Shown here piece after piece: positions 58,457 through 63,972 of a stretch of 64,000 nucleotides of DNA. The position numbers and the translations under genes were made by a program. The stretch spans positions 1 through 64,000 of the forward strand of contig JAGGTH010000077.1 of NCBI GenBank assembly GCA_021163845.1. Direction: 5' to 3'. Below the pieces are notes generated by a model. That model worked only from the letters and a program-made list of their open reading frames with translations, had not been told where the DNA came from and did no database searches. Each line of letters starts with the position of its first letter. Position 1 is the first letter of the stretch. This DNA is from Helicobacteraceae bacterium (GTDB taxonomy: Bacteria > Campylobacterota > Campylobacteria > Campylobacterales > Sulfurimonadaceae).

Positions 58457-61060
58457 GTGATGGTTCTACGGCTCCTCTTGTTATGTACTCTTTTTTTCTC
58501 CCCCTCTCTTATTGCAGATGAGCTTGTAAAAGTCGGTGTTTTAGCACACAGAGGCATACCCATTACACTTTCTAGATATAAGGCAACAGCTGAATATCTT
58601 ACAAATAAAATAGAGGACTATCATTTTGAGATTGTACCTCTTGGCTTTGATGCACTCAAAAAGAGTGTAAAAAATAAAGAGATCGATTTTGTTTTGACCA
58701 ATACGATGTACTATGTTGAGCTTGAGTATCTCTACGGTGTGAGCCGTATCGCAACACTGAAAAATCTTAGCAGTACAGGGGATGAACTTACAAGTTTTGG
58801 GGGTGTGATCCTTGCAAAAAAGCAAAGTGAACTCGATGATCTTCAAGACCTCAAGGGCAAGCGCTTTGGAGCGGTGGATAAAAACTCTTTTGGTGGCTGG
58901 GTAATGGCACAAAAAGAGCTCAAAGATGAAGGGATAGAGGTAGAGGATTTTAGAAGTTTTCACTTTTTTGGAAGCCATGACCGTGTCGTTGTAGCGATTC
59001 GTGATGGAGAGATCGATGCGGGAACAGTGCGTACAGATACACTTGAGAGGATGGAGAGTGAAGGGCTGATCGCTCCAGAAGGCTTTAAGGTCGTAGGGCA
59101 AAAACAGTATAGTGGATTTCCATTTGTAGTGAGTACACGTTTGTATCCTGAGTGGCCTTTTGCAAAACTTGCCTCTACATCCCAAGAACTTTCAGATAAA
59201 GTTCTCATAGCACTCTTGCAGATGCCCTCTGATGCAAAAGCAGCAAGAGATGCAAATGTGGCAGGGTGGACGATCGCTCTTGATTATTCAAGCGTACATA
59301 AAATGCTCGAAGAGTTACATCTAGGACCATACAAAGATTTTGGGCATTTGACACTTGAACGTTTTTATGAGCAACATACGAGACTTTTTTACGGAGTACT
59401 TAGTGTTTTTTTACTCATTTTAGCAGTGCTTTTGTACATCTCTAGACTCAATCGCAGGCTCAAAGAAAGTCAAGAGGAGATAGAATCTCTCAATCAAAAC
59501 CTCGAAAATAAGGTGCACGCACGTACGAATGAGCTCAAAGAGTTGTATCTGCATGAGAGATATCTCAAGAATATTCTCAAAACAACGGCGGATATCAACG
59601 AACTTCTTATCACTTCCATCTCGACGCAAAATGTCCTTAAAAACAGTATGGAGAAGTTGATCGGGAATGAACATTATCAGCTGATTTGTATCAGTCTCAA
59701 AAAAGAGAACCTTTTTGAAGTGGTCGCAAAATCTTTTGAAGACAAAGCACTTGTGGGGCATCGAAGTTATCCTTATGAACTTGTGCAAGATCAAGATGAA
59801 CAACTCTTTGAGACACGAGTAGAACAACTTCCTGATGGTGAGAGCTTTCAACTTAAAAATGATAGCTACCAGTGCCCCGCTTGTTGGATAGTGAAAGTAC
59901 CTATTCGAAGTAATGAGGATGAAGAAAATTACGGAGTATTGAGTGTTTTTTCTACAAGAGAAAATGGCTTTGAAGCTCAAGAGATCAATATTCTTGAAAA
60001 CCTTGCAACCGATATAGGTCTTACGCTAGGTTCTATTTATCAAAAGAGTAAATTGGAGTATATGGAACTTGAAAGAATAGCAAATTATGAAGAGACGATC
60101 TTGGCATTTGTCAATATTATTGAACAGCGTGATAGCTACACCGCAGGGCATACGCTTCGGGTCGCTCAGTATTGTACATTGCTCGCAGAGCATCTTGGAC
60201 TAAGTGAACAGGAAAGACACAAGCTTGAAAAAGCTGCGATCTTGCATGATATTGGCAAGGTCGTGACCCCTGATTCTATTTTGCTCAAACCTGGGAATCT
60301 CTCTGCTTTGGAGTATGAACTGATTAAAGAACATGCAGATGCAGGTTATAAGATGCTCTCAAAGATCAATATGTATCAAGATTTAGCCGACATCATTAAG
60401 TACCACCATTCGCGCTACGATGGAGATGGATATCCTCAAACATCAGCTAGCGATCCTGATGCGGTACCATTTTTGTCTCATATCATGGCGGTCGCAGATG
60501 CTTTTGATGCAATGACCACAACACGTATCTACAAGCCAAGAAAAACACTTCAAGAGGCGATAGAAGAGATAGAGATGCTCAGTGGTGCGCAGTTTCATCC
60601 AGATGTTGCAAAAGCAGCTGTAGAGGTATTTGCAAAGATCGAGCTTGTTGATACGACACAGATGCCAAAAAATGAGCTCGAACAGCGCCGTTTTTCCTAT
60701 TTTTTTATGGACTCTTTGACGGAAGTATACAATGAAAACTATCTGCAGATCGTGCTTCTTGAGGCTAAGAAGACTCATCAAACTTTAGTTCGTATTGAGC
60801 TCAATCAGTTTACAGCTTATAATAAAGAGTTTAGTTGGGAAGAGGGAAATACTTTGCTTGTAAACTTTGCAAAATGGCTTAAAGAGAACTATAGTGAAGC
60901 GATGCTCTTTCGCTACCATGGAGATAATTTTGTACTTCTTTTCAAGGAAGCATATACAATTTCAGAAGAAGAGATTGAGGTCCTTGATATTTTTAGCTCA
61001 AGCAGTATCACAACGACGATCACCCATTATAATCTCAAAAAAAAGGTTCCTCAGCTTTAG
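58457..61060 (+). CDS. PhnD-like periplasmic sensor - TM - GAF - HD-GYP - degenerate GGDEF protein
   Basis: PhnD-like start (VKVGVLAHRGIPITLSRYKATAEYL); HD-GYP residues HDIGKV and HHSRYDGDGYP; C-terminal RYHGDNFVLLF in place of RxGGDEF. Confidence 0.88.
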   Translation: MMVLRLLLLCTLFFSPSLIADELVKVGVLAHRGIPITLSRYKATAEYLTNKIEDYHFEIVPLGFDALKKSVKNKEIDFVLTNTMYYVELEYLYGVSRIATLKNLSSTGDELTSFGGVILAKKQSELDDLQDLKGKRFGAVDKNSFGGWVMAQKELKDEGIEVEDFRSFHFFGSHDRVVVAIRDGEIDAGTVRTDTLERMESEGLIAPEGFKVVGQKQYSGFPFVVSTRLYPEWPFAKLASTSQELSDKVLIALLQMPSDAKAARDANVAGWTIALDYSSVHKMLEELHLGPYKDFGHLTLERFYEQHTRLFYGVLSVFLLILAVLLYISRLNRRLKESQEEIESLNQNLENKVHARTNELKELYLHERYLKNILKTTADINELLITSISTQNVLKNSMEKLIGNEHYQLICISLKKENLFEVVAKSFEDKALVGHRSYPYELVQDQDEQLFETRVEQLPDGESFQLKNDSYQCPACWIVKVPIRSNEDEENYGVLSVFSTRENGFEAQEINILENLATDIGLTLGSIYQKSKLEYMELERIANYEETILAFVNIIEQRDSYTAGHTLRVAQYCTLLAEHLGLSEQERHKLEKAAILHDIGKVVTPDSILLKPGNLSALEYELIKEHADAGYKMLSKINMYQDLADIIKYHHSRYDGDGYPQTSASDPDAVPFLSHIMAVADAFDAMTTTRIYKPRKTLQEAIEEIEMLSGAQFHPDVAKAAVEVFAKIELVDTTQMPKNELEQRRFSYFFMDSLTEVYNENYLQIVLLEAKKTHQTLVRIELNQFTAYNKEFSWEEGNTLLVNFAKWLKENYSEAMLFRYHGDNFVLLFKEAYTISEEEIEVLDIFSSSSITTTITHYNLKKKVPQL

Positions 61061-62157
61061 ATTCCAAACTCTTGTTTGACCTTTGTCACAAAGAGCTGAG
61101 GGTCAGATTTTACATCTCCGAGTACTTTTATATTGTTGAGAATTCCACGTTTATATACGAGTCCTTTGTTCTCATGTCGATCCATCGCTTTTGAATACAG
61201 AGGGGGCTTTTTTGTCACGAGCAAAATTTTCCCATCATCATCTAATATATTCGAGAGTGCGGTATATTTGTAGATAAGCTCTTCTAGTTTGACACGGTTG
61301 AGATACTTGCACTCGATCATATGGAGATGATTATTTTTCATAATGAGGATATCAAACTCATTGGAGATACGCGAATTTTTGTACTTCTCATACACTTTAA
61401 ACCCTACCTCTATATCATCGTAATCAAGGTCTTTGATGAGGTTGTAGATATAAGATTCAAAGATATTTCCTGTGAGATGGGGATCTTTAACATTGTAGGC
61501 ACCAAAGCCGTAATGCTTGAATATATTTCGAATAAGATGGTGCTGTTTTGGTAATTCTGCGATACTTTTTGCACTCTTAGGGTCAACTCCCAAGAACTGA
61601 TTGTAGGGTCTATGGTATTTCTCTATGAGTAGGGTGATAAGCTTTTCATGTTGCTGCGCAAATTTTTTGATATCACTCGTCTCCACACCAAAGCCTTTGA
61701 GTAAAAAGTGATCTTGAATATTCATCTTTTTTTGGAGTGGTTTTTTTTCAAAAGTGTTTTGGTTGATAAGAGTGTAGGTATTGTTAAACATATCATAAGA
61801 GATAAAATTCACCTTTTCTTTGAAAAGAAGATGGTTTAAAACGGTAGTAACAGTAGCGAAGCCATCTGTGATATTGATGTAGAGATCTTGTGGACTATCA
61901 ACATAGGAGAGAAGCGTTTTGGAGCACTGAGCCAAAGACTCTAGTGTGTCGTCGTGCAGGATATACTCTCTTGTTTGAAACCTGCATTTGTGTTTCTGGC
62001 AAAACTCTTCAATGCCACTTGCAACTTGCTGTGCCAAGCGTACATCCCGAGAAAAGTTATCATACAAGAGGATATGCTGTGTCATCTCATCCTTGTACTC
62101 ATAAAATAGGGGCAAAATAGATGAGTGAAAATCACCCACGATCGAGACAAGCGTCAT
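61057..62157 (-). CDS. Card1/Can2-like protein: N-terminal CARF-like domain and DUF1887 PD-(D/E)xK nuclease
   Basis: CARF-like strand YINITDGFATVTTVLNHLLF; nuclease motif GNIFESYIYNLI ... ISNEFDILIMKNNHLHMIECKYLN. Confidence 0.78.
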   Translation of the reverse strand: MTLVSIVGDFHSSILPLFYEYKDEMTQHILLYDNFSRDVRLAQQVASGIEEFCQKHKCRFQTREYILHDDTLESLAQCSKTLLSYVDSPQDLYINITDGFATVTTVLNHLLFKEKVNFISYDMFNNTYTLINQNTFEKKPLQKKMNIQDHFLLKGFGVETSDIKKFAQQHEKLITLLIEKYHRPYNQFLGVDPKSAKSIAELPKQHHLIRNIFKHYGFGAYNVKDPHLTGNIFESYIYNLIKDLDYDDIEVGFKVYEKYKNSRISNEFDILIMKNNHLHMIECKYLNRVKLEELIYKYTALSNILDDDGKILLVTKKPPLYSKAMDRHENKGLVYKRGILNNIKVLGDVKSDPQLFVTKVKQEFGI

Positions 62158-63188
62158 TTATTCTCCTGATCTGAAAGCTCTTGGAGCCTTTGGCGTACAC
62201 TTTGTTGGAGTTTTTGTGTGTACTCCTCTTTTGTTTGTGAAAGTGTAGAGAAAAAACTATTTTTTATTGCTGAGAGTGTGTGATTTTTCTCCTCTTCTAT
62301 AAGTATATGGAGTTCTCGCTCAAAAGCTTCGCGGTGGAGATACTCATCTCCCTCTAAGATGATCTTGTCGGTGGCAAACCATCCAGCCACACCCGTGGCG
62401 ACGCCACAAGCGATCGCTCCTGGTCCACTCGGTGCACACAGGGCAAAACCACCTGCACCCGCACTCAGAGCGCCACCCATTTTTGCCCCCGCTTTGATTG
62501 CGAGTTTGGCTCCCATTTTTTTGGCTACAAGTGCTCCTATCACTCCTGCTCCCACTACACCACTGGCTCGCAAAGAGGTGTGAAAGTTGTTCTCAAAGCG
62601 ATTGAGTGTACTTTGGATCTGAAGCGCGAGGATCTTCTCTAGAGCACCTCGCTCCTCCTCTGAGAGCTTTGTCTGTGTGTAGAGTGAGGTGGAGACATCT
62701 TCGAGTGAGAGGTGCAAAGTACGGTAGACCTTATCGATGATTCTTTGTTGGGATGTAAGCATCTTTGTATCAAAGTCGGTAGCATCAAAGAGATACTTTT
62801 TGAGATATTTTCCCCCATCATTTTGCGAATAAGCCCACAGCTCGATATATTCCCCTTTGAGACTGTAATGAAAGTCTGCATAGACAGGAATCTGTTTCTT
62901 CACTTGTTCAAAAAGTGTCGTTATCTCTGTTTCGATGATCTTTGTGATATTCTCTTGAAGCTTGGGAGAATTTAGGATACGTTCTATCTCTTGGGGTGCG
63001 AGTTTGAGAATGTTTTGGAGTTGTGATTCTAACTGAATGGTATCGGCGTTTGTTTGGAGCACTTGTATCTTTTTTTCTTGGAGGAGTTCTGCTTTTACAA
63101 ACAAAAAAAGCCAAAGGGCGAAGATACTTAAGATAGTGATCCAAAAAGAGCGCCAAAGGAGTTGGTTCTTAGGCATTTTCACTCTCAT
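62154..63188 (-). CDS. Membrane protein with N-terminal TM and glycine-rich hydrophobic segments
   Basis: FWITILSIFALWLFLFV; GVVGAGVIGALVAKKMGAKLAIKAGAKMGGALSAGAGGFALCAPSGPGAIACGVATGVAGWFATD; ATGA overlap with the CARF gene. Confidence 0.8.
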   Translation of the reverse strand: MRVKMPKNQLLWRSFWITILSIFALWLFLFVKAELLQEKKIQVLQTNADTIQLESQLQNILKLAPQEIERILNSPKLQENITKIIETEITTLFEQVKKQIPVYADFHYSLKGEYIELWAYSQNDGGKYLKKYLFDATDFDTKMLTSQQRIIDKVYRTLHLSLEDVSTSLYTQTKLSEEERGALEKILALQIQSTLNRFENNFHTSLRASGVVGAGVIGALVAKKMGAKLAIKAGAKMGGALSAGAGGFALCAPSGPGAIACGVATGVAGWFATDKIILEGDEYLHREAFERELHILIEEEKNHTLSAIKNSFFSTLSQTKEEYTQKLQQSVRQRLQELSDQENK

Positions 63189-63972
63189 AAGCGTGTATAA
63201 AGCGCACTACCTCTAGGATATAGCGGCTAAGTGCGAAAAAGAGCAGTCCCCCTTGGAGTAAAAAGAGCAAGGTTGTTGCAAGGCGAAGCGCACTTTGTTC
63301 AAGGGTGTCGATGAGGTAACTCCAGGTGTGCCACTGCAACACTTGTGCTTCGGCATTGAGCTTGAGCAGGGTATTTAAAAAACCACACTCAGAAGCGACG
63401 CTGTTAGAAAAAAGCATCATATTTTGCTCTAAGCCATTTTGCAGATCGATCGGGGGTGAGGCGTAGTATTGCATCGCAGCATAAAAAAGTGCCATCACGG
63501 CGACATTGATCCATGTGATAAAAGCGATCACGACACGCTCTCTCATCCGCTCTTTGAGAGTAGAGCGAAACTTTGAGAGTAGATAGATATAGGAAAATCC
63601 GAGGATAAAACTATCCACAAGTAAAACAAGCACACCCCAAAGATCCATCAGAGGAAGGGATGTAAAGAGAAAGAGCGCGACAAAGAGTGCTAGAAAAAAG
63701 CTGATAAGTGTTAAAAAAATAGGGCTTTTAACCACCTTGCTCAAGAAGCTATCTTCTCTAAAATAGCACGCTGCCAAACAGCGTCTTTGTTCAAGTTTCA
63801 TACGCGCGAGGCTATAGGTGATGATAAGGGTGACGAGCATTGGGATCGCTAAAGAAAAAGCACATCCCAGCATATAGATCTGTTGGTAAATCAGGAGCAA
63901 AACAAAAGCGGCGAAGAGAGCAAGAAGTGTCTTGAAATGCATACAAACCCCCTTTGTGCGTTGGAGCATCAT
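63169..63972 (-). CDS. Polytopic inner-membrane protein
   Basis: Several hydrophobic helices; overlaps the downstream gene by up to 20 nt (8 nt if that gene starts at MPKN). Confidence 0.75.
   Translation of the reverse strand: MMLQRTKGVCMHFKTLLALFAAFVLLLIYQQIYMLGCAFSLAIPMLVTLIITYSLARMKLEQRRCLAACYFREDSFLSKVVKSPIFLTLISFFLALFVALFLFTSLPLMDLWGVLVLLVDSFILGFSYIYLLSKFRSTLKERMRERVVIAFITWINVAVMALFYAAMQYYASPPIDLQNGLEQNMMLFSNSVASECGFLNTLLKLNAEAQVLQWHTWSYLIDTLEQSALRLATTLLFLLQGGLLFFALSRYILEVVRFIHAYESENA

What the first reader, a model, noticed from the sequence alone, without database searches (positions are those of the whole stretch)
61057..63972. Possible undescribed system: CARF/Card1-like nuclease translationally coupled to two membrane proteins, no CRISPR in view
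Seen: three minus-strand genes with overlapping ends (63169/63188, and ATGA at 62154-62157). The last encodes a Rossmann/CARF-like N-terminus and a DUF1887-type PD-(D/E)xK nuclease (GNIFE, NEFD, ECK). The two upstream genes encode a polytopic membrane protein and a membrane protein with glycine-rich hydrophobic segments. Known: Card1/Can2 nucleases are ancillary effectors of type III CRISPR, activated by cyclic oligoadenylate. Inference: a nuclease co-translated with two membrane proteins and lacking a local CRISPR-Cas may be a membrane-coupled defence or stress system using another ligand or trigger.
Basis: partly seen in the sequence, partly recalled or inferred. Interest (0 to 1): 0.8.

Follow-up and report, generated by a model that had tools for sequence, protein, structure and literature searches.

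The report
Stray CARF nuclease beside membrane genes
A Sulfurimonas-type bacterium with no CRISPR system carries a stray copy of a CRISPR-alarm-activated DNA/RNA-cutting enzyme; the two membrane genes next to it are bystanders, but its relatives repeatedly sit with, or are fused to, the parts of an unusual alarm pathway (SAM-AMP), so the enzyme may answer to a different signal from the textbook one.

Summary
Gene 61057-62157 (-) encodes a CARF plus PD-(D/E)xK nuclease of the Can2/Card1/VC1899 (DUF1887) family with intact catalytic residues, overlapping a two-gene membrane operon. The three-gene 'system' does not hold. The membrane pair occurs elsewhere in the family without the nuclease, often fused into one ~600-aa protein, and nuclease homologues in 21 other genomes sit beside other genes. 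The genome (99.9% complete) has no Cas10, RAMP, Cas1 or SMODS cyclase, so the nuclease is an orphan. A closed genome with a 50%-identical copy also lacks Cas10, RAMP and Cas1.

The relatives show what it derives from. All six family genomes (of 228) with a CorA-associated DHH phosphodiesterase (NrN type, whose characterised member is specific for SAM-AMP) also have this nuclease, within about 2.5 kb or fused to it. An Arcobacter plasmid and a genome of another family repeat the linkage. The Can2 lysine that grips cA4 is alanine here and no relative examined has a lysine there. Best reading: an orphan derived from a second effector of SAM-AMP type III-B CRISPR modules. The SAM-AMP link is inferred from genetics only; the orphan's ligand is unknown.

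The parts
61057..62157 (-). CARF - PD-(D/E)xK nuclease, 366 aa, DUF1887/Can2/Card1 family (PADLOC CARF4--CARF_PDDEXK); orphan
61708..62157 (-). CARF (Rossmann) domain, about aa 1-150; beta1 loop V7-G-D-F-x-S-S, D33 (invariant), N95-I-T-D-G99, Y121-D122, N126 (invariant); Can2 Lys99 position is Ala101
61861..61875 (-). CARF motif N-I-T-D-G (aa 95-99); TGGTK in Can2 and Card1
61210..61482 (-). PD-(D/E)xK endonuclease core (aa 226-316): G230/E234, N266-E267-F-D269, E282-C-K284, Y296-K297
62163..62167 (-). AGGAG Shine-Dalgarno of the nuclease gene, inside the end of MEM2
62154..62157 (-). ATGA overlap: MEM2 stop with nuclease start
62154..63188 (-). MEM2: N-terminal TM, helical protein with Gly/Ala-rich hydrophobic segment, 344 aa; neighbour, not judged part of a system with the nuclease; homologous to the C-terminal half of ~600-aa fused proteins in relatives
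63169..63972 (-). MEM1: polytopic membrane protein, 267 aa; partner of MEM2 (fused in many relatives); neighbour, not judged part of a system with the nuclease

Best explanation
The 61057-62157 gene is a CRISPR-detached (orphan) member of the Can2/Card1 (DUF1887) CARF nuclease family. It belongs to a Campylobacterota branch whose CRISPR-linked members are effectors lying with CorA-NrN (SAM-AMP) type III-B modules. By homology it should be a dimer in which ligand binding between two CARF domains opens the PD-(D/E)xK domains to cut nucleic acid non-specifically, causing dormancy or death of an infected cell. Shown here by sequence: domain identity, intact catalytic residues, loss of the cA4-binding lysine, absence of detectable Cas10/RAMP/Cas1/SMODS genes in the genome, and repeated linkage or fusion of relatives to the CorA-associated phosphodiesterase. 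Inferred: the CRISPR-linked relatives sense SAM-AMP or a similar weakly charged nucleotide rather than cA4; the window copy came from such a module and is kept either for another nucleotide signal or for Cas10s arriving on mobile elements. The two upstream membrane genes are an independent, often fused unit that only shares a transcript.
For: Family. Orphan status: no Csm1_B; Cas10-palm matches only at 8.5e-6, the level of the E. coli control and of most genomes, which I read as GGDEF background; no RAMP, NrN, Cas1, CRISPR-type CorA (best 1.3e-7 against 2e-126 for true ones) or SMODS. The closed genome G217 (50% identical copy) lacks Cas10, RAMP and Cas1 as well. CRISPR link of relatives: the CorA-associated DHH protein is in 6 of 228 genomes, all 6 nuclease-positive (22 of 228; raw p 4e-7), adjacent or fused in all; CRISPR-type CorA in 5 genomes, all nuclease-positive; Arcobacter plasmid CP134857 with Cmr + NrN-CorA + WYL + nuclease; a further nuclease-NrN fusion beside NrN-CorA in another family. 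Nearest relative in the tree, G128, has the nrn gene directly downstream and Cmr genes elsewhere. The label falls in several separate branches (7 changes needed, at least 6 forced by well-supported branches). B. fragilis NrN cleaves only SAM-AMP, not cA2-6 (PMC10600005). Retention: the window end branch (0.68) is similar to that of the CRISPR-linked sister (0.59) and all invariant residues are kept.
Against: Not every NrN-CorA locus has the nuclease nearby: G551 and a Haliscomenobacter plasmid do not. One nuclease (G227) lies next to a III-D locus with a Csx20-type ring nuclease, which suggests a cyclic-oligoadenylate context there, and G032/G145 have III-D Cas10 elsewhere, so cA-type ligands are not excluded for part of the family. 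Twelve of 22 nuclease-positive genomes show no Cas10, RAMP or NrN, though many are incomplete. Counts are not corrected for kinship. The CARF pocket comparison rests on sequence alignment; the structure model is poor. No biochemistry.
Confidence: 0.72

Rival explanations
1. One reading: MEM1, MEM2 and the nuclease form one membrane-coupled defence or stress system; the membrane proteins sense or execute, the nuclease is the effector, translation is coupled.
For: Overlapping ORFs on one strand. Several other relatives also have membrane-protein genes just upstream (stomatin-NfeD in G217, G105, G192; small TM proteins in G182, G033). CorA, a membrane effector, accompanies many.
Against: The arrangement is found in only 1 of 228 family genomes; MEM2 occurs in 19 other genomes, none of which carries the nuclease. 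MEM1 and MEM2 are fused to each other in about ten genomes without the nuclease. Closest nuclease relatives have four different neighbours.
Confidence: 0.06
2. Ordinary cA4-responsive Can2/Card1 effector left behind after loss of a type III locus, or used in trans by Cas10 of incoming plasmids or phages.
For: Family membership; among good-quality genomes Cas10 is in 5 of 11 nuclease-positive against 8 of 128 negative ones (p 0.001); III-D/Csx20 neighbourhood in G227; Tyr118 of Can2 is kept (Y121).
Against: Can2 Lys99, the phosphate-gripping residue, is Ala101 here and no homologue aligned has Lys at that place; by position, invariant D33 appears to stand where VC1899 has an Asp that was judged unfavourable for cA4.
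Confidence: 0.2
3. A VC1899-like orphan with a CRISPR-independent housekeeping or stress role that was never an immune effector in this lineage.
For: VC1899 is a known orphan of this family not regulated by cA4 (PMC7969007). Several relatives sit at housekeeping loci (bioA, dapF, dCMP deaminase, mutY). No conserved defence neighbours in the window copy.
Against: Patchy presence (22 of 228) and varied location fit mobile defence genes better than housekeeping; the sister branch carries NrN and Cmr genes.
Confidence: 0.14
4. Decaying relic without function.
For: No ligand source found in the genome.
Against: Full-length ORF, strong ribosome site, all invariant residues kept, branch length like the CRISPR-linked sister; a second orphan (G217) is also intact.
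Confidence: 0.1

Closest known systems
Can2 / Card1 (type III CRISPR ancillary CARF nucleases, cA4-activated)
   Same: CARF + PD-(D/E)xK architecture, catalytic residues, similar length
   Different: No Cas10 in the genome; Can2 Lys99 (TGGTK) replaced by Ala (TDGFA); about 16% identity to Can2 in the structure-based alignment
VC1899 (Vibrio cholerae orphan DUF1887 CARF protein, PDB 1XMX)
   Same: Orphan, conserved nuclease domain, apparently acidic CARF pocket (PMC7969007)
   Different: Different bacterial class; Tyr118 of Can2 is kept here (Y121) but is Val in VC1899; VC1899 has Arg where Can2 has Lys99
CorA-NrN SAM-AMP module of type III-B CRISPR (PMC10600005)
   Same: Relatives of this nuclease are adjacent or fused to NrN and next to CorA, WYL and Cmr genes
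   Different: The window genome has neither NrN nor CRISPR-type CorA; no CARF nuclease has been reported in the papers read as responding to SAM-AMP

Membership tests
Can2/Card1 (DUF1887) CARF nuclease family | C-terminal Card1-like PD-(D/E)xK domain with catalytic E/D...ExK residues | tested here: met
   PF09002 42.3 bits over cut-off 26.4; invariant E267, D269, E282, K284
Can2/Card1 (DUF1887) CARF nuclease family | N-terminal CARF domain | tested here: met
   PADLOC CARF4--CARF_PDDEXK aa 1-316 at 3.5e-78; family profile reaches into the CARF half of Can2 and Card1; Foldseek top hits Can2, Card1
Can2/Card1 as cA4-activated type III effector | cA4-contact residues, especially Lys99 of Can2 | tested here: not met
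   Ala101 at the Lys99 place; no Lys in any homologue aligned
Can2/Card1 as cA4-activated type III effector | Cas10 in locus or genome | tested here: not met
   No Cas10, RAMP or Cas1 in a 99.89% complete genome; draft assembly of 113 contigs
Can2/Card1 as cA4-activated type III effector | Activation of nuclease by cA4 | not testable with these tools
   needs protein
SAM-AMP (CorA-NrN) type III-B module | NrN/DEDD/lyase and CorA beside Cmr genes | tested here: not met
   window genome has no NrN and no CRISPR-type CorA; DEDD and lyase not searched. Met in relatives G105, G186 and Arcobacter CP134857
Leo (dynamin-like) defence components for MEM1-MEM2 | Dynamin GTPase partner and full-length match | tested here: not met
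   only weak matches over the C-terminal part (7.9e-7, 1.5e-4, 8.9e-8); no adjacent protein with a dynamin-like P-loop GTPase signature recognised in the neighbourhoods listed (pattern scan only)
CBASS effector | SMODS/CD-NTase in the genome | tested here: not met
   no SMODS match in G000; other cyclase families not searched

The most novel reading that the evidence does not exclude
A branch of CARF - PD-(D/E)xK nucleases in Campylobacterota is a second, non-membrane effector class of the SAM-AMP signalling branch of type III-B CRISPR: the CARF pocket has been re-tuned from cA4 to SAM-AMP, and in some members the SAM-AMP phosphodiesterase is fused to the nuclease as a built-in off switch. The window gene is an orphaned descendant that may respond to a SAM-AMP-like signal from another source.
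Probability: 0.33. Interest if true: 0.75.

Novelty: new variant of a known kind. Interest (0 to 1): 0.5.

Why it matters
In the papers read here, CorA is the only effector described for SAM-AMP and every characterised CARF effector is tied to cyclic oligoadenylates. A CARF nuclease that is consistently linked, and at least three times fused, to the CorA-associated phosphodiesterase gives a direct, cheap test of whether CARF domains can read SAM-AMP. It also bears on what orphan CARF nucleases such as VC1899 do in cells without Cas10, which the Can2 paper leaves uncharacterised. For the window itself the lesson is modest: operon overlap is not evidence of a shared system.

Tried and rejected
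(1) Three-gene membrane-coupled system: rejected from neighbourhood comparison. (2) MEM1-MEM2 as LeoB/LeoC dynamin partners: only weak C-terminal similarity and no dynamin-like neighbour recognised by P-loop pattern. (3) A type III locus elsewhere in the genome: not found. (4) CBASS-type SMODS cyclase as ligand source: none in the window genome. (5) Phage or virus origin: no match in viral contigs or phage records. (8) Empty-site test for insertion of the nuclease: not made, since relatives with MEM1-MEM2 do not share the flanking genes. (9) The CARF superfamily classification paper (PMC7498327) is not held, so whether it already lists the NrN fusions could not be checked.
Full report
WHAT IS THERE. 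Three minus-strand ORFs end the window: 63169-63972 (MEM1, 267 aa), 62154-63188 (MEM2, 344 aa), 61057-62157 (nuclease, 366 aa), with 20-bp and 4-bp overlaps and an AGGAG ribosome site five bases before the nuclease start. The nuclease hits Pfam Card1_endonuc (6.7e-11, above the curated cut-off), PADLOC CARF4--CARF_PDDEXK (3.5e-78 over aa 1-316), and Can2 and VC1899 in the PDB. A profile of 16 homologues hits Can2 (9e-18) and Card1 (1.7e-8) into the CARF half, and VC1899 (1.6e-11). A low-confidence AlphaFold model (pLDDT 46.9) still finds Can2, Card1, Cdn1 and VC1899 as its best folds.

THE GENOME. The window is contig C1:1-64000 of a 2.24-Mb draft, 99.89% complete. Two of its 'same genus' genomes appear to be the same records as L031 and L032, titled Sulfurimonas, judged by matching contig lengths, so the host is a Sulfurimonas in GTDB terms. 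It has no Csm1_B. Its Cas10-palm matches reach only 8.5e-6; E. coli and most of the family also match at such levels, so I treat them as GGDEF background. It has no RAMP, Cas1, NrN, CRISPR-type CorA or SMODS cyclase. The closed genome G217, with a 50%-identical nuclease, also lacks Cas10, RAMP and Cas1. CRISPR arrays were not searched.

THE MEMBRANE PAIR. MEM2 relatives occur in 20 of 228 family genomes and MEM1 relatives in 12. They are neighbours in several genomes and fused into one ~600-aa protein in about ten. None of the 19 other MEM2 genomes has the nuclease. The only annotation is a weak match to the C-terminal part of Leo dynamin-like proteins, and no dynamin-like P-loop neighbour was recognised (pattern scan). 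MEM1 and MEM2 are therefore one unit and the nuclease is a late neighbour.

THE NUCLEASE FAMILY. It is patchy: 22 of 228 genomes. The window copy groups with G128, G217 and G145 (100/100), and these four have four different neighbours: MEM1-MEM2, NrN, stomatin-NfeD, and bioA. Other relatives adjoin dapF, an integrase with a STAND-like TPR protein, a PP2C-like/NERD/kinase protein, dCMP deaminase or mutY.

LINK TO SAM-AMP MODULES. The small protein after the G128 nuclease is the PADLOC 'DHH_CorA' family (2.9e-69), the NrN type, whose B. fragilis member degrades SAM-AMP and not cA2-6 (PMC10600005). It occurs in 6 of 228 genomes, all nuclease-positive (raw p 4e-7), always close. G128: directly downstream. 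G187: divergent, with WYL-NrN-CorA. G087: nuclease end followed by an NrN-CorA fusion. G105: 2.5 kb away, with NrN-CorA and Cmr. G186 and G053: fused to the nuclease. CRISPR-type CorA is in five genomes, all in this set. Outside the family, three near-identical Arcobacter 83-kb plasmid records carry Cmr, NrN-CorA, WYL and the nuclease (neighbours read in one of the three), and G349 has a third nuclease-NrN fusion beside NrN-CorA. G551 and a Haliscomenobacter plasmid have NrN-CorA without the nuclease within the stretch read. On the tree the NrN label needs 7 changes, at least 6 forced by well-supported branches, so it is not one inherited block. In G227 the nuclease faces a III-D locus with a Csx20-type ring nuclease, so part of the family may serve cyclic-oligoadenylate systems.

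LIGAND POCKET. In Can2 and Can1, four residues conserved for cA4 are Ser19, Thr42, Lys99 and Tyr118; VC1899, an orphan not regulated by cA4, has Asp9, Asp34, Arg96 and Val115 (PMC7969007). Direct alignment puts Can2 TGGTK(99) on TDGFA(101) here; no homologue examined has lysine there. Tyr118 is kept (Y121). D33, invariant in 18 sequences, falls by position where VC1899 has Asp34; this last equivalence is my inference because the N-terminal strands were not aligned to Can2 by any tool. The pocket thus seems poor for a polyanion and could suit a less charged ligand such as SAM-AMP, which is a hypothesis only.

MECHANISM. By homology: ligand binding across a CARF dimer exposes the nuclease cleft, and non-specific DNA/RNA cutting stops the infected cell. 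Shown: domains, catalytic residues, orphan state, loss of the lysine, linkage of relatives. Inferred: dimerisation, activity, ligand, and immune role of the window copy. Its branch length is like that of the CRISPR-linked sister (0.68 vs 0.59) and nothing catalytic is lost, which speaks against a dead relic.

VERDICT. The nuclease is real and orphan; the three-gene system is not supported. The finding worth pursuing is in the relatives: a CARF nuclease tied to, and fused with, the SAM-AMP phosphodiesterase. In the open-access papers searched I found no report of this, but the main CARF classification paper was not available, so prior listing cannot be excluded.

Noticed in passing
L101:3036-4883, L106:79-1953, L145:2533-4371: CARF - PD-(D/E)xK nuclease fused to an NrN-type (DHH_CorA) phosphodiesterase in three genomes, next to CorA or NrN-CorA.
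   Followed up: yes
L034:8384-10815, L035:7379-9820, L119:88-1625, L114:1-1960: In four genomes from two branches of the nuclease tree the gene adjoins a stomatin (SPFH)/NfeD gene or pair, three times downstream and once upstream; reason unknown.
   Followed up: partly
L143:1-13517 (Arcobacter plasmid CP134857): An 83-kb plasmid carries a type III-B CRISPR locus with an NrN-CorA fusion, a NERD-helicase, WYL regulator and a relative of this nuclease.
   Followed up: yes
L102:1-9940: A nuclease relative lies divergent to a type III-D-like locus with a Csx20-family ring nuclease, so some members may serve cyclic oligoadenylate systems.
   Followed up: partly
L108:1086-6953 and L037:1634-4770: Two relatives sit by defence-like genes: an integrase with a 1588-aa STAND-like TPR protein, and a PP2C-like/NERD/protein-kinase protein.
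   Followed up: no
62154-63972; L076-L087: MEM1 and MEM2 are one functional unit: split in some Sulfurimonas relatives and fused into a single ~600-aa membrane protein in others; function unknown, with weak Leo/dynamin C-terminal similarity.
   Followed up: partly
58457-61060 (+): GTG-started 867-aa protein with a phosphonate-binding domain, HD-GYP-like and degenerate GGDEF domains, converging on the nuclease with a 4-bp overlap of the ends.
   Followed up: no
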